Shown: one piece after another, positions 1,531-11,080 of the stretch
How the letters are laid out: every line of letters starts with the position of its first letter
Position numbering within the stretch: the first letter of the stretch is position 1
Assembly (NCBI GenBank): GCA_019694165.1
Contig: JAIBCL010000008.1
Span: forward strand, 124,001-188,000
Length of the DNA stretch: 64,000 nt
Direction of reading: 5' to 3'
Source: Verrucomicrobiaceae bacterium
Lineage (GTDB): Bacteria; Verrucomicrobiota; Verrucomicrobiia; Verrucomicrobiales; Verrucomicrobiaceae
Made by a program: the position numbers and the translations under genes
Notes under the pieces: model-generated
What the model saw: only the letters and a program-made list of their open reading frames with translations
Databases searched by the model: none
What the model was told of the DNA's origin: nothing

Positions 1531-1899
1531 TTACGCCTCCGCATCCCGGTGCACCGTCTCGATTCCAAAGGCGGGCACGCAGATCGCCACATACTCCGCG
1601 CCTTCGTCGCCCGGCGTGCTGTAGCTGACCCACTCGCCGGCGTGGGCGATGACGCCCTGGCCGGCGGTCACGTCGAGCGAGCCGCCTTTGTGCTCCACGC
1701 GCAGCGTACCCTTCAGCACCAGCGTGTATTCCTCAAACTCCGGCGTCTGCCCCGGCTCCACCCAGCCGCCCGGGCTGCGCATGTGGGCGACGCTGATGCC
1801 GCTGTGACCGGAATTCACACGGCCGATGTATTCGTCGATGAGCTTGGGCTTGTTGCCGGCGGAAGTGATGCGCGTGGGCTTTGCGATGAGCGTGGGCAT
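1531..1899 (-). CDS. Small cupin-domain protein
   Basis: A 122-residue single-domain cupin. The first cupin motif region is around PGQTPEFEEYTLVLKG, with Glu/His-type ligand positions, and the second is around GQGVIAHAGEWVSY. I chose the ATG at 1899, because the longer reading frame back to 1995 would run into the start of the neighbouring + strand gene and has no family support. Such small cupins bind a metal and sit in varied pathways (sugar modification, ethanolamine-utilisation-like, or sensing), so the substrate is unknown. It converges with the Fur-type gene, with 45 bp between the stops. Confidence 0.8.
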   Translation of the reverse strand: MPTLIAKPTRITSAGNKPKLIDEYIGRVNSGHSGISVAHMRSPGGWVEPGQTPEFEEYTLVLKGTLRVEHKGGSLDVTAGQGVIAHAGEWVSYSTPGDEGAEYVAICVPAFGIETVHRDAEA

Positions 1900-1982
1900 G
1901 GCAGCTTTATGAAGGAAAGCGCGCGTTTGCACAAGCAAAGAAAGTCGTGTTCCATGCCGCCCGTTTTCCCCGCCCCACTGCC

Positions 1983-4331
1983 ATGAAAAAACCAACCGCT
2001 CTTCTTTTCGCGCTTCTCGTTTCCCTCCGTGCCGCCACGGCCGCCGATCAACTTTGGATCGAGGCCGAGTCGTTCAAAGATCGCGGCGGCTGGGTGCTGG
2101 ATACGCAGTTCATCAGCATCATGGGCTCACCGTATCTCATGGCGCACGGCATGGGCCGGCCGGTGAAGGATGCGACGACGACGATCGATGGCATCGAGGG
2201 CAAGGTGACGGTGTGGCTGCGCACGAAAAACTGGGTGGGGCCCTGGGATGCGCCGGGCGCGCCGGGGCGCTTCGGAGTGAGCGTGGGCGGGCAGAAGCTG
2301 GCGCATGAATTTGGCGCGACGGGCAAGGACTGGCAGTGGGAGAATGGCGGCAGCGTCGAGGTGAAAAGCGGCGCCCAGATCGCGCTGCACGATCTCACGG
2401 GATTCGACGGTCGTGTCGATGCGATTTTGCTCAGCAAGGACGCGGGCTTCACGCCGCCGAATGATTTCCCGGCGACGAACAAGCTGCGCCGGCAGCTTCT
2501 CGGTCTGCCTGAGCGGGCGCCGGAGACGGAGGAATTCGATCTCGTCGTGGTCGGCGGTGGTTACTCCGGTCTCGGCGCGGCGATCTCGGGTGCGCGTCAG
2601 GGATTGAAGGTCGCGCTGGTGCAGGATCGTCCGGTGCTCGGTGGCAATGGATCGAGCGAGATCCAGGTGTGGGCTCAGGGCGGCACGCGTCGCGGTTTGT
2701 ATCCGCATCTCGGCGAGATCGTGGAGGAGTTTGCCGATCGCGCGAGCAACAGCCCGGCGGCAACGCCGGATGAGTTCAACGACAAGCTGAAGGAAGACAC
2801 CGTGCGTGCGGAGAAAACGATGCAGCTTTTCCTCAACACGTATGTGCATGGCGTCGAACTGAACGGCGACAAAACGATCCGCTCCGTCACCGGTCTCGAT
2901 ACGCAAAAGGGCCGCGAGACGCGCATTCGCGGGAAGTTGTTTGTCGATTGCACCGGTCACGGCACCGTCGGCGCGCTGGCGGGCGCGAGCTTCATGATGG
3001 AAGAGCAGGGCCGCATGGGCATGAGCAACATGTGGGTGATGAAGAAGACCGACACACCGCATCCGTGGCCCGACACGCCGTGGTCACTGCAGTTTGGTCT
3101 CGACGATTTTCCGCATCCGCGGCCGATGGGCGGCATCGGCGAGAAGAACAAGGCGAATCAAGAAGGCTATGATCTCGGCTACACCCCCGAGCCGCATCCC
3201 GAGGACTACCTGCATGGCGAGTGGTTCTGGGAGAGCGGCTTCAACAAGCACCCGATCAACGACCTCGAACTCATCCGCGATCACAACTTCCGCGCGGTCT
3301 ATGGCGCGGTGACGGCGATGCGCAAACTCGCGCCGGAGAAATACGGCAGCTTCGACCTCCAATGGCTCGCGTTCATCGGCGGACCGCGCGAATCGCGCCG
3401 CATCATCGGCGACTACGTGCTGCAAGGTGAGGACATGGTGAAGAACACGATTTTCCCCGACGGCTGCGTGCCGACCACATGGGACCAGGACCTGCACTAT
3501 CCGAAGGAGCAGTATGCCGCGAAGTTCCCCGACAACCCCTTCATCTCGCGCGCTGAGTTTGGAAAACACACTGACAAGCGCAATGGCTACCCGGTGCCGT
3601 ATCGCTGCTTCTATTCCAAGGACATCGGCAATCTCTTCATGGCCGGCCGCACGATCAGCGTGGAGCGCCATGCGCTCGGCAGCACGCGCGTGATGCGCAC
3701 CTGCGGCATGATGGGTGAGGTCGTCGGCAAGGCGGCGTGGATTTGCGTGCGCCATCACACCACGCCGCGCGGTGTGTATGAGCAGTATCTCGACATTCTC
3801 AAAGACCTCATGAGCCAGCCCGGTGCGATGCGTCGCGATTCGCTCGAAGCGGCACTGTATCTGCCGGCGAATGCGAAGAAGCTGCCTGAGCCGGCCATCG
3901 CCGCAGACTGGATCGATCCGAAGAAGCTGGAAGGAATCGTCATCGACGACGAAAACGCCGATCTCACCGGCAAGTGGGCCAGCGGCGAGGGGCTGAAGCC
4001 GTTCGTCGGCAAATGCTACCGCTACACGGCCGAGAAAGGCGCGAGCGCGCGTTTCGCATTCTCCGTCCGTGAGACGGGCAACTATGAGGTCCGCATCTAC
4101 TGGCAGCCGCATCAGAACCGCGCCAAGAGCGCACCCGTCACCGTGTTCAGCGCCGATGGCGAGAAATCGTTCACGGTGGATCAAACGAAGAAGACCGAGC
4201 TTCCAAAAGGCGCGCACAGCCTCGGCACCTTCAAGTTCACCGCCGGCCAGGAAGCGTCCGTCGTCTTCCGCACCGAAGGTTCCCAGGGCAACGTGCATCT
4301 CGATGCCGTGCAGGTGCTGCCGGCCAAATGA
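1983..4331 (+). CDS. Secreted FAD-dependent oxidoreductase with C-terminal golvesin-like domain
   Basis: The 782-residue protein has a clear signal peptide (residues 1-21, MKKPTALL then hydrophobic, ending TAA). An N-terminal carbohydrate-binding-like beta domain starting LWIEAESF follows. The FAD domain (FAD_oxidored type) begins near residue 186 with the dinucleotide motif VVVGGGYSGLG and the GGNGSSEI segment. A C-terminal beta domain (about 675-782) resembles the golvesin or xanthan-lyase-associated module. Related proteins are abundant in Verrucomicrobiota and Planctomycetota and are presumed to oxidise glycans or glycan-derived substrates outside the cytoplasm, but the reaction is not established. 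The start at 1983 was chosen because it begins directly at the signal peptide; an upstream in-frame ATG at 1947 adds 12 unlikely residues. Confidence 0.85.
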   Translation: MKKPTALLFALLVSLRAATAADQLWIEAESFKDRGGWVLDTQFISIMGSPYLMAHGMGRPVKDATTTIDGIEGKVTVWLRTKNWVGPWDAPGAPGRFGVSVGGQKLAHEFGATGKDWQWENGGSVEVKSGAQIALHDLTGFDGRVDAILLSKDAGFTPPNDFPATNKLRRQLLGLPERAPETEEFDLVVVGGGYSGLGAAISGARQGLKVALVQDRPVLGGNGSSEIQVWAQGGTRRGLYPHLGEIVEEFADRASNSPAATPDEFNDKLKEDTVRAEKTMQLFLNTYVHGVELNGDKTIRSVTGLDTQKGRETRIRGKLFVDCTGHGTVGALAGASFMMEEQGRMGMSNMWVMKKTDTPHPWPDTPWSLQFGLDDFPHPRPMGGIGEKNKANQEGYDLGYTPEPHPEDYLHGEWFWESGFNKHPINDLELIRDHNFRAVYGAVTAMRKLAPEKYGSFDLQWLAFIGGPRESRRIIGDYVLQGEDMVKNTIFPDGCVPTTWDQDLHYPKEQYAAKFPDNPFISRAEFGKHTDKRNGYPVPYRCFYSKDIGNLFMAGRTISVERHALGSTRVMRTCGMMGEVVGKAAWICVRHHTTPRGVYEQYLDILKDLMSQPGAMRRDSLEAALYLPANAKKLPEPAIAADWIDPKKLEGIVIDDENADLTGKWASGEGLKPFVGKCYRYTAEKGASARFAFSVRETGNYEVRIYWQPHQNRAKSAPVTVFSADGEKSFTVDQTKKTELPKGAHSLGTFKFTAGQEASVVFRTEGSQGNVHLDAVQVLPAK

Positions 4332-6825: not shown

Positions 6826-6985
6826 GGGCAAGGCCGCAAGTGTGCAGCCCGCCGCCAGCCTCCCGGCCCGTGCGTCAGGTCACTGCGCGTACGAAACGCG
6901 CCGACCGGGGTAGATTCCACTGGCAATCGAAGCCGCAGACCGTGACGGACACACGGGGACGTCCGGCTTCGAGTCCCGCTCGAAG

Positions 6986-7664
6986 CTACTTCTTCTCCTT
7001 CTCCGCCTTCAGCTTCTCGATGGCGGCACGCGCATCGGCCAGCGTAGTCCCGGGCTTCAGCCCGCACCCGCGTCGCTACACGAGTAGCCTTCGATCTCAC
7101 CTCGCCCGCCATCGAAGCCCAGCGGCCTGCGGCGTGGTCACGCGCTCAAGCGCATGACTACTTTGACTTCTCCGCTTGGATCGTCTCGATGACGGCGCAC
7201 GCATCGGCCAAAGTAGTCCCGGGCTTCAGCCCGCACCCGCGTCGCTACACGAGTAGCCTTCGATCTCACCTCGCCGGTCAGCGAAGGCCAGCGGCCTGCG
7301 ACGTGGTCACGCGCTCAAGCGCATGGCTACTTTGGCTTCACCGCTTGGATCGTCTCAATGGCGGCGCGCGCATCGGCCAAAGTAGTCCCGGGCTTCAGCC
7401 CGCACCCGCGTCGCTATGCGAGCAGCCTTCGATCTCACCTCGCCCGCCATCGAAGCCCAGCGGCCTGCGGCGTGGTCACGCGCTCAAGCGCATGACTACT
7501 TTGGCTTCACCGCTTGGATCGTCTCAATTGCGGCGCGCGCATCGGCCAAAGTAGTCCCGGGCTTCAGCCCGCACCCGCGTCGCCACGCGAGTAGCCTTCG
7601 ATCTCACCTCGCCCGTCATCGAAGCCCAGCGGCCAGCGACATGGTCACGCGCTCAAGCGCATGG
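6986..7664. repeat. Four-copy tandem repeat (about 169 bp unit) carrying copies of the adjacent gene's 3' end
   Basis: Copies lie at 6986-7157, 7158-7326, 7327-7495 and 7496-7664. The last three are each 169 bp and the first is 172 bp. Every copy begins (read on the + strand) with CTA, the complement of a TAG stop, followed by a degenerate copy of the last codons of the STAND gene that ends at 7665. On the minus strand the copies read as tails such as DARAAIEKLKAEKEKK-stop (first copy) and DARAAIETIQAVKPK-stop (third and fourth), against EVRAAIEKLKAKKKPK-stop in the gene. The rest of each unit is hairpin-rich: GGGCTTCAGCCC, TTCGAT...ATCGAA, and GCGCTCAAGCGC. There are no unique spacers, so it is not a CRISPR array. 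The 160 bp between the Tat oxidoreductase and the first copy show nothing recognisable. Confidence 0.85.
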
Positions 7665-10600
7665 CTACTTTGGCTTCTTCTTCGCCTTCAGCTTCTCGAT
7701 GGCGGCGCGCACCTCATCTTCCCACGGCAGCTTCTCGTCCTTCGCCGGATCATACAGCGGCAGCACGGGCACGGGGACGTTCATCTGCCGGAGCAGTTCG
7801 GTGGTCTGGGTGAGTTCGTAGCGGCGCACATACGGCTCGCCGTCGGCCCAGGCCCATTTGTAGGCGGCGAGGGCGTGGTGCTTCGCCTGCTCGGGGTCGC
7901 CGAGGGCGAGCCAGAGCTGGGCGAGGCGGCGATGCGCGGGGTCGCGGAGTTGGGCCAGGCGCTCGGCTTCTTCGCGGGGATTGGCGAGCTGGCCGAGGTG
8001 GTGCTTGGCCACGGCGAGGCCGGTCTCGGAGGCGGCATCAATGACCGACCGGGTATCGCGGGCCAGGCGCACGGCCTCCTGATAGCTCTCTGCCGCCAGC
8101 GCCCACTCGCCCTGCGTCAGCCGCCAGTCGCCGCGCAGGCGGTGGAGAGAGCGGATGATGCCGCGGTCTTTGCCCTGGGCCGCTAGGCGCTCGGCCTCGG
8201 CCAGGTGCGCTTCCTGCAAGCTGCCCTGCCAGAAGTGAAACCACGCATAATGCGTCTCAGCCAATCCGGGCCGATAGAAGGCGCGCGACCAAGCGCGGCC
8301 CATGGGGTCGAGCAGGCTCCAGGTGGCGGCGGCCTCCGCCCACTGGCCCAGCCTCGACTGGTCGGCGAAAAGGTTGAGTCGGCTCACGAAAACGCCTTCC
8401 TTGTTTTCGCTCAAGGTGGCGACCTCCAAGGCGAGGGAATCCGTGCGGAGCGCTTGGACGAGCCGATTCTGGGCGGTCAGATTGAGCGAGATGTTGCGGA
8501 ACTTCGTCGCCGTATTCGTCCAATCTTCGGCTTCCAAGTCGGCTCGGAGGCCAGCGCCGTAGGCGGCGAGAGCGGCAGCCAGTTCACCGCAACAGTTCAA
8601 GGCTATCGCCGCGCAACTTGCCAGATAGGAACTGGCTCTGGAGAACCCCTCTTTCGGCAGTTCGCCCCAGCCGTTGGGGAAGAAGGGCTTCAGCAAGGAC
8701 AAGACTTCGACATAGGCATTGAGGTTGAACAGGAGCGCATTCGACAAAGAACCCCGGTAGGCATCCACCGCCTGCTGGTAGTGGCCGAGCTTCAGCAGGG
8801 TGCGGACGACGTGCAGGCCGCTGCGCACGTCCTCCAGCGTTTCGGCTTCCTCGTAGGGGCGGTGGGGCTGGACGGTGAAGTGGTCCACCACGCGCTGGCC
8901 GTGGCGTTCGCGGTCCGCCGCCGCCATTGCGCCCGAGGCGACGCCGCGGACGACGGGGTGCAGGTCATACTTCCGCGTGCGGCCCTCCCATTGCAGCAGG
9001 CCGCGCTGCTCTAGGTCTTTGACGGTCGCTTCCAGCTTCTTCGGCGCGGCGCGGAACGCCGGTGATTCGAGCCACGCCTGCACGGCAGGTTGGGCTCTCC
9101 ATTTTGAAAGTGCAGCTTCGTATTCCTTCCGCAGTTCGGCTTTCTCCTCCTCGTCTGAGAATTCCCACTCCCAGTCCTTCTCCGGCGGCTCCGGCTTCTC
9201 CACCTCCTCCGGCTCCGGTGGCAGGTGGGGATTGAAGGCTTTGAGCGTCTCGTAGTCCACGGAGTCGGTGAGCAGGGCGAGGGTGGAGAGGAGCTGGCGG
9301 CTGGCGTCGGGCAGCTCTTTGATCGCAGCCTCAAGGATGTGGTTGCGGCGCTGGATGAGGTCGAGGCTGGCGAGGTCGAGCGCGGCTCCGCCGTCGGGGG
9401 CGGCGGACCAGGCGTCGAAGTCGCCGCGCGCGGGCAGGTAGTTCGCGATGAGGCCGCCGAGGATGCCGATGACGAGCGGGTGGTTGTCGCAGTTGGCGGT
9501 GAGGTAGCTCTGGATGGCGTCGCTTTTCCCCTCGATGCCGCAGGAGCGCAGGAGGGCCTCGGCATCCGGCGGGCGCAGGCCGGGGAGGGTGATGCGCTTC
9601 GCGCCGGGGATGGTCTGGCCGGAGGGATTCAGCAGGACGCGCGGGGTGAGGCGGGAGCTGACGAGGAGCTTCGACGGGGCGGCGGCGGCGAGGGCGCGGA
9701 GGAGGTCGTTGTCCTCGTCGCGGATGGCGTCGCAGGGGTTGCGGTTGACGATTTTGTCGGTGGGGATGTTCGCCTCCTCGTCGGGGACTTCGGCGGCATC
9801 GATGCGGTGATAGGCGACGAGGATGCGCTCGAGTCCATCGAGGATGAGCAGCCAGGGCCGGGCATGAAGCTGGGCGAGGAGGTCGTCCTTCAACTCGGCG
9901 GTCTTCTTTTTCGCGAAGTCCTCCTGCGGACGCTCCGTCATGTAGGCGAGGGCGTGGCGGCAGAAGTCCTCCATGCTCGCGCCGCCCTCGTAGAACGAAT
10001 ACCAGAAGCGCCCGGCCCAAGGCTGATCCGCCGGGCGCGCGGCGAGGGCGTGTCGGAGATTGGTCGTCCACTCCCAGGTGAGCATGCTCTTGCCATTGCC
10101 GCCGATGGCTTCGAAGAGGAGCAGGTTTGTGGGATCGGCCGGCGCGGCCCAGTCGGAGAGGAGCTGGAGCTCTGCGGCGCGCCCGACGAACTTGTGCGAG
10201 CCGATGTAGTCGGGCTCGGCGTAGAAGGCGGGAGGCTTGGGGAGGCCGGTGGGCAGTAAGCCAGAAGGCGGTGCGTCAGTGGGCGGTGGTGGATTGGTTG
10301 GCGTGGATGATTCGAGATGGCGCTGCATCTCGGAAAGCGGAGCGCCGATGATTTCCTTCAACTGTTCCAGGCTTTCGAAGGTGCCGTAAACGCGATTCAC
10401 CGCTGAGCTTGGAGCCGACTTCTTTGCCAGTTTACGGAATGCTTCGAGCTTCTTGCGCTTACTCGCATCGAGTTCGATCTCCGACTCAATGCGCGGGTGA
10501 TGGTCCCCCATCAGGAACAACAGCACCGGCCGCTTTAATCGAACGGCCTCGCGATATTCCAGTTCGGTGATCGACAGCTTCTTGGGATTACGCGTGGGAC

Positions 10601-10850
10601 ATTCCGGCGTCTGTCCATACTTGCGCCCAATGATCAGGATATAAGCGGCACTCTTCGCCACCATGCCGAGCGATGCATCCACCACATCGCCAGTGAGCTT
10701 CGCATCACTGAACTCCATGCCGACGGGATGCATGTCGTGTTTGCTGATGGCTTGGATCAAAGCGTTCCGATGCTCCTTCAAATCCGTGAAGGTGCTGGAC
10801 ACCATGACTTGCGGAACAGGCTTCGGCGCTGGGGAGACTTCGTCAGACAT
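7665..10850 (-). CDS. DUF4062 - STAND-type NTPase - helical repeat protein (candidate conflict/defence sensor)
   Basis: The 1061-residue protein has three parts. Residues 12-115 form a DUF4062 domain (VMVSSTFTDLKEHR at 15-28, YILIIGRKYG at 70-79, SITELEYREAV at 93-103). A Pro-rich linker follows (about 180-205). The NTPase module begins with FVGRAAELQLL; its P-loop is GGNGKSM (250-256) and its Walker B is LLILDGLER (334-342). The rest is a long alpha-helical repeat region, TPR-like from about residue 700, which would serve as a sensor. This is the classic STAND layout of effector, switch and sensor. The start at 10850 (MSDEVSP) is chosen because the longer frame to 11168 merely reads through an upstream hairpin element. 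It stands alone, with no partner genes. Biological role is unproven. Confidence 0.85.
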   Translation of the reverse strand: MSDEVSPAPKPVPQVMVSSTFTDLKEHRNALIQAISKHDMHPVGMEFSDAKLTGDVVDASLGMVAKSAAYILIIGRKYGQTPECPTRNPKKLSITELEYREAVRLKRPVLLFLMGDHHPRIESEIELDASKRKKLEAFRKLAKKSAPSSAVNRVYGTFESLEQLKEIIGAPLSEMQRHLESSTPTNPPPPTDAPPSGLLPTGLPKPPAFYAEPDYIGSHKFVGRAAELQLLSDWAAPADPTNLLLFEAIGGNGKSMLTWEWTTNLRHALAARPADQPWAGRFWYSFYEGGASMEDFCRHALAYMTERPQEDFAKKKTAELKDDLLAQLHARPWLLILDGLERILVAYHRIDAAEVPDEEANIPTDKIVNRNPCDAIRDEDNDLLRALAAAAPSKLLVSSRLTPRVLLNPSGQTIPGAKRITLPGLRPPDAEALLRSCGIEGKSDAIQSYLTANCDNHPLVIGILGGLIANYLPARGDFDAWSAAPDGGAALDLASLDLIQRRNHILEAAIKELPDASRQLLSTLALLTDSVDYETLKAFNPHLPPEPEEVEKPEPPEKDWEWEFSDEEEKAELRKEYEAALSKWRAQPAVQAWLESPAFRAAPKKLEATVKDLEQRGLLQWEGRTRKYDLHPVVRGVASGAMAAADRERHGQRVVDHFTVQPHRPYEEAETLEDVRSGLHVVRTLLKLGHYQQAVDAYRGSLSNALLFNLNAYVEVLSLLKPFFPNGWGELPKEGFSRASSYLASCAAIALNCCGELAAALAAYGAGLRADLEAEDWTNTATKFRNISLNLTAQNRLVQALRTDSLALEVATLSENKEGVFVSRLNLFADQSRLGQWAEAAATWSLLDPMGRAWSRAFYRPGLAETHYAWFHFWQGSLQEAHLAEAERLAAQGKDRGIIRSLHRLRGDWRLTQGEWALAAESYQEAVRLARDTRSVIDAASETGLAVAKHHLGQLANPREEAERLAQLRDPAHRRLAQLWLALGDPEQAKHHALAAYKWAWADGEPYVRRYELTQTTELLRQMNVPVPVLPLYDPAKDEKLPWEDEVRAAIEKLKAKKKPK

Positions 10851-10936: not shown

Positions 10937-11080
10937 GTTGGAGTCCCGGCTTCAGCCGGTCACGCTGCGAAGTACACACGCAGACTTTCGCCGCTCTCGT
11001 TTGCCGAGCGGACCGCAGGACGTTCCAGCAGCGACACCATGTGCCGCGCTCTGCCAACCGCCTGAAGGCGGGACTCCAAC
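10937..11080. repeat. Inverted pair of 23-bp REP-like hairpins upstream of the STAND gene
   Basis: The left arm at 10937-10959 (GTTGGAGTCCCGGCTTCAGC...) and the right arm at 11058-11080 are inverted copies. They differ at two positions that keep each arm's own small hairpin intact (CGGCTTCAGCCG against CCGCCTTCAGGCGG). The core GAGTCCCGG-CTTCAG is shared with the tandem repeat at the other end of the gene, where it reads GTAGTCCCGGGCTTCAGCCCG. The arrangement resembles a bacterial interspersed mosaic element (paired REPs). It fills most of the 307-bp gap between the STAND gene start and the MetE-like gene; no other gene was seen there. Confidence 0.7.

What the first reader, a model, noticed from the sequence alone, without database searches (positions are those of the whole stretch)
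6986..7664. Tandem repeat whose units each carry a copy of the neighbouring gene's stop codon and last codons
Four consecutive units (172, 169, 169 and 169 bp) lie exactly against the stop codon of the DUF4062-STAND gene. Each starts with a degenerate copy of the gene's last 14-16 codons and TAG, followed by a block of three hairpins. This implies that the repeat unit spans the 3' end of the gene, and that the array grew by amplification of gene tail plus hairpin block. The tails vary (KLKAEKEKK, TIQAEKSK, TIQAVKPK) while the hairpin blocks are nearly constant. The result may let the gene swap its C-terminus by slippage or recombination.
Basis: partly seen in the sequence, partly recalled or inferred. 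Interest (0 to 1): 0.62.

Follow-up and report, generated by a model that had tools for sequence, protein, structure and literature searches.

The report
REP-doublet array repeating a gene's tail
A cluster of a known kind of mobile hairpin repeat (REP doublets) sits at the end of a probable anti-phage gene, supplies its stop codon and has been multiplied together with the gene's last codons; it is largely an ordinary repeat cluster, with some evidence that the gene's tail was once patched from the repeat.

Summary
The repeat is real: four units (169, 169, 169, 172 bp) abut the stop codon of a DUF4062 gene on the minus strand, each with a tail copy plus TAG. The 'hairpin block' is a REP doublet (REPIN) of the GTAG superfamily: its ends read CAAAGTAG/CTACTTTG, and its hairpins belong to a covarying REP family dispersed in the genome without any tail. 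The REP's GTAG supplies the TAG. Tail copies are local. Tandem REPIN clusters that include flanking sequence, and GTAG REPs that provide stop codons, are both published, so this is a new member of a known kind. Unusual: the tails are not plain duplicates. The gene's own tail is a mosaic (15 nt equal to relatives' allele, next 21 nt equal to the far-end copy, last codons equal to the array type), and copies 2-4 carry another tail type. A truncated orthologue (G047) shows tail-REPIN-tail with other REPINs, and G010 keeps only a tail relic beside REPINs. Past exchange between gene tail and repeat is plausible, but there are no strain data, the tail is poorly conserved, and nothing supports a programmed switch.

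The parts
7665..10850 (-). DUF4062 gene (1061 codons, TPR-like C-terminal part), host of the array; its stop codon TAG (7665-7667) is part of a REP's GTAG
7665..7724 (-). T1, tail of the gene (WEDEVRAAIEKLKAKKKPK*), mosaic
7547..7672 (.). X1, REP doublet nearest the gene, ends CAAAGTAG/CTACTTTG
7496..7546 (-). T2, tail copy (ADARAAIETIQAVKPK*)
7378..7503 (.). X2, REP doublet
7327..7377 (-). T3, tail copy (ADARAAIETIQAVKPK*)
7209..7334 (.). X3, REP doublet
7158..7208 (-). T4, tail copy (ADACAVIETIQAEKSK*)
7040..7165 (.). X4, REP doublet; its far end reads CTACGCTG instead of CTACTTTG
6986..7039 (-). T5, far-end tail copy (ADARAAIEKLKAEKEKK*), closest to the family's usual tail
6910..6989 (.). 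Y, a REP doublet of another family; its GTAG supplies the TAG of T5
   Evidence: same family at stops of other reading frames

Best explanation
This is a tandem cluster of REP doublets (REPINs, GTAG superfamily) at the 3' end of a DUF4062 gene, in which the flank repeated along with each REPIN is the gene's own 3' tail. Shown: the REP ends carry GTAG, whose TAG is the stop codon of the gene and of every tail copy; the REPIN family is dispersed without tails; the tail copies are local; the gene's tail is a mosaic. Inferred: REPINs (first Y, then X) became lodged in the last codons of the gene and cut off an earlier, longer tail; a unit of X plus tail, possibly from another allele of the gene, was multiplied by unequal recombination or replication slippage; recombination between gene and array then replaced the gene's last codons. 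Function, inferred only: the transcribed hairpins just after the stop codon may affect RNA stability, termination or translation, as proposed for REPs in general; the tail itself is probably of little importance.
For: Ends and hairpins match dispersed elements: 17 and 29 sites genome-wide for the two hairpins (4 of each in the array), none for the reversed control patterns, mostly as doublets with the same ends and without a gene tail. Paired positions covary: score 0.221 against 0.114 in shuffles, 0 of 500 as high. Y1 transposase genes are present in the genome (16 matches); in relative G024, REPIN arrays with the same ends lie on both sides of such a gene and one ends at the TAG stop of an esterase-like reading frame. 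Tail motif confined to this locus, orthologues and the G010 relic in 68 genomes. Gene tail: left 15 nt equal G025/L040, next 21 nt equal T5, no orthologue nearer than 2 differences there. X blocks and T2-T4 diverge at similar rates, as for units copied whole. Literature: tandem REPIN clusters typically include flanking sequence (PMC3116915); GTAG REP ends often provide TAG stops (PMC3733652).
Against: The order of events is not fixed by any intermediate genome. T5 and T2-T4 differ from T1 in ways that a plain duplication does not explain. The mosaic rests on 15 and 21 nt. No second array with tail copies was found in 1.66 Mb of the genome. The cognate transposase of X was not identified. The RNA fold of a unit is not more stable than its shuffles (z -0.76).
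Confidence: 0.8

Rival explanations
1. Tail-exchange cassettes: REPIN-plus-tail units, perhaps as circular intermediates, recombine with the tails of alleles of this gene and so exchange its C-terminus and stop codon, now or in the recent past.
For: Mosaic tail of the gene and third tail type in T2-T4, nearest an orthologue with IETIRA (4 of 21 nt, one amino-acid change); tail-REPIN-tail with a different allele in G047; tail relic beside REPINs in G010.
Against: Closest relatives have no array. G047's gene is truncated and frameshifted and G010 keeps only a relic, so decay fits as well. The tail shows little constraint. No strain data.
Confidence: 0.1
2. REPINs of this family make long (about 45 bp) target duplications when they insert, and the tail copies are such duplications.
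For: Own locus and G047 both have a second tail of about 45 bp across a REPIN.
Against: Six other complete REPINs in 1.66 Mb show no duplicated flanks (scores 13-18; mismatched-flank median 16). T5 and G047's second tail match other alleles better than the adjacent gene at their left ends. General knowledge: IS200/IS605-type transposition makes no target duplication.
Confidence: 0.05
3. Programmed C-terminal variation like a silent-cassette system.
For: Several silent tail copies next to an expressed one, ending in the same stop.
Against: Copies 2-4 are nearly the same as each other; the family's tail varies freely; no dedicated recombinase beside the array; no expressed T2-T4-type gene seen.
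Confidence: 0.02

Closest known systems
Tandem REPIN clusters of Pseudomonas fluorescens SBW25 (PMC3116915)
   Same: Tandem repeats of nearly identical REP doublets including flanking sequence; largest cluster has four REPINs and over 700 bp, close to this one
   Different: There the flank is extragenic; here it is the coding tail of the gene with its stop codon, and the copies come from more than one tail type
GTAG-tagged palindromic repeats, including those of the verrucomicrobium Opitutus terrae (PMC3733652)
   Same: GTAG tag, 6-9 bp stems, head-to-tail or opposed dimers with variable spacers, location downstream of genes, TAG of the REP used as stop codon
   Different: No repeated gene tail is described in the passages I read
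BIME arrays (REPs in alternating orientation)
   Same: Alternating REPs at regular spacing
   Different: Spacer is a gene tail here
DUF4062 'Swarozyc' antiphage NADases (preprint PMC13174449)
   Same: The host gene has a DUF4062 domain and a patchy distribution across phyla
   Different: Concerns the gene, not the repeat; defence function not tested here

Membership tests
GTAG REP / REPIN | Palindrome tagged by GTAG at one end | tested here: met
   GTAG conserved at most of 30 ends; hairpin covaries
GTAG REP / REPIN | Two REPs in opposite orientation forming one element | tested here: met
   39-nt inverted arms in each block; same in dispersed copies
GTAG REP / REPIN | Dispersed in the genome | tested here: met
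   13 and 25 sites outside the array, control 0
GTAG REP / REPIN | Y1 (RAYT-type) transposase in the same genome | tested here: met
   16 Y1_Tnp matches
GTAG REP / REPIN | Cognate transposase flanked by this REP family | tested here: inconclusive
   Seen in relative G024; in this genome homologues at 34-36% identity, without this REP beside them
Tandem REPIN cluster | Tandem units of REPIN plus flanking sequence | tested here: met
Silent-cassette tail-switch system | Expressed tail differs between strains and matches different copies | not testable with these tools
   One genome per species held
Transposon with long target duplication | Direct flank duplication at most copies | tested here: not met

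The most novel reading that the evidence does not exclude
REPIN-linked gene-tail units act as small recombining cassettes that repeatedly graft new C-termini and a ready-made stop codon onto horizontally spreading DUF4062 genes, leaving tail fossils behind when gene bodies are lost or replaced.
Probability: 0.1. Interest if true: 0.55.

Novelty: new member of a known kind. Interest (0 to 1): 0.3.

Why it matters
It is a clear case in which a mobile hairpin repeat ends a gene and carries copies of that gene's end, so it records how REP clusters grow and how they can alter protein C-termini. If tails vary between strains, it would be a testable route by which REPs change proteins and not only RNA ends.

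Tried and rejected
Rfam: no match. A dispersed repeat with a fixed codon-like piece: rejected, the tail is confined to this gene, its orthologues and one relic. Long target duplication as a general property of these REPINs: rejected. Preferred insertion at stop codons by this REP family: not supported in 1.66 Mb (frame of the TAG fits in 2 of 7 long upstream frames). Other arrays of this kind in 1.66 Mb: none with GTAG ends. REPIN arrays in G024: real, but I saw no gene-tail copies in their units by eye. Shared locus with the G010 relic: not supported, the neighbouring Gfo/Idh gene is on another contig there. Defence-family models in PADLOC and NCBIfam: no match for the gene. A literature search for partial gene duplications of this sort found nothing.

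Full report
Observation. The minus strand reads gene tail, TAG, block, tail copy, TAG, block, with four blocks, and then a different element. TAG codons lie at 7665 (the gene), 7496, 7327, 7158 and 6986, giving units of 169, 169, 169 and 172 bp as reported; TRF gives period 169 with score 1144. The tail copies match the gene far better than chance: 5 to 11 mismatches in 36 nt, against 8 of 3.33 million other 36-mers within 11.

What the block is. Each block is 118 bp, or 126 bp with the full ends CAAAGTAG and CTACTTTG, and holds two hairpins facing each other. Searches of the whole genome find 17 and 29 sites for the two hairpins, 4 of each in this array, and none for the reversed control patterns. 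The dispersed copies are mostly pairs of hairpins with the same ends and variable spacers, without a gene-tail copy. Across 30 such hairpins the paired positions change together: covariation score 0.221 against 0.114 in shuffles, 0 of 500 as high, and sliding the partner destroys the pairing. This is a GTAG-type REP, and the block is a REP doublet or REPIN. The TAG of the gene and of each copy is part of the REP's GTAG. The far-end copy is followed by Y (6910-6989), a REP doublet of another family, which also ends two related reading frames elsewhere, one in this genome and one in G030 (read from the sequences).

Tail copies are local. In 68 genomes of the family the tail motif is found only in this genome, in the orthologues of G025 and G047 and as a relic in G010, apart from one weak hit at E 0.05. 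Among 28 orthologue 3' ends from several phyla, tail copies beyond the stop were found only in G047; the closest relatives end in a longer or different tail and mostly TGA.

Where the tails come from. The gene's tail is a mosaic. After WE, its 15 nt (DEVRA) equal those of G025 and of a Pedosphaera orthologue (L040); its next 21 nt equal the far-end copy T5 exactly, while the nearest orthologues differ by 2; its last codons (AAGCCAAAGTAG) equal the array type. T5 begins like another orthologue, L054, with two synonymous changes. T2-T4 carry IETIQA, closest to an orthologue with IETIRA. These stretches are short, so this is suggestive and not proof. In G047 the orthologue lacks its N-terminal part and is broken by a frameshift; its tail is followed by another REPIN type, then a second tail nearest to the G010 allele, then a third REPIN type. 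In G010 about 30 codons of tail remain, followed by Y and then another REPIN, with an inverted repeat directly before the tail, at a place not syntenic with the window. The gene tree places the window's gene among orthologues from several phyla, apart from G047, though few forks are well supported, so the arrangement probably arose more than once.

How it arose. Most likely Y lodged in the gene's tail in an ancestor, since the same tail-Y junction is in G010 (78% identity over 113 bp). A unit of X plus a tail then entered, or arose in, the tail and was multiplied by recombination or slippage; T2-T4 and their blocks diverge at similar rates, as expected for units copied whole. Long target duplications are not general for these REPINs. 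These steps are inferred.

What it does. REPs downstream of genes are thought to act on RNA. Here the first hairpin begins within a few bases of the stop codon, so an effect on RNA stability, termination or translation is plausible but untested; the fold of one unit is not more stable than its shuffles. The protein tail varies across the family, so changes of the last codons are probably tolerated rather than useful.

Known or new. REPINs in ordered clusters are typically tandem repeats including flanking sequence (PMC3116915), and GTAG REP ends often provide the TAG stop to flanking reading frames (PMC3733652). This locus combines both. The mosaic tail and the recurrence at the same gene are the unusual parts. 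The host gene has a DUF4062 domain, a family described in a 2026 preprint as TIR-like NADases with antiphage function (PMC13174449); I did not test this.

Noticed in passing
window 10937-11080: A REP-doublet-like inverted repeat of another type (GTTGGAGTCCCGGCTTCAGCCGGT and its inverse) lies about 90 bp upstream of the DUF4062 gene, so the gene sits between such elements on both sides.
   Followed up: partly
G024:C36 (L105 866-1432; L106 6-404 and 1143-1424): Tandem REPIN arrays with the same CAAAGTAG ends, two of them on either side of a Y1 transposase gene.
   Followed up: partly
G000:C61:251000-251382 (in L177): A 140-bp tandem array of hairpin-bearing units starts right at the stop codon of a Y1_Tnp gene.
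   Followed up: no
L249 (G047:C17) 1722-4177: Orthologue of the DUF4062 gene without its N-terminal part and with a frameshift, i.e. a decayed copy with REPINs in its tail.
   Followed up: partly
G000:C22:291266-291503 (in L139): 63-bp (21-codon) tandem repeat that reads GPHAGMI/AGPHAGT in one frame, looks coding-like or low-complexity.
   Followed up: no
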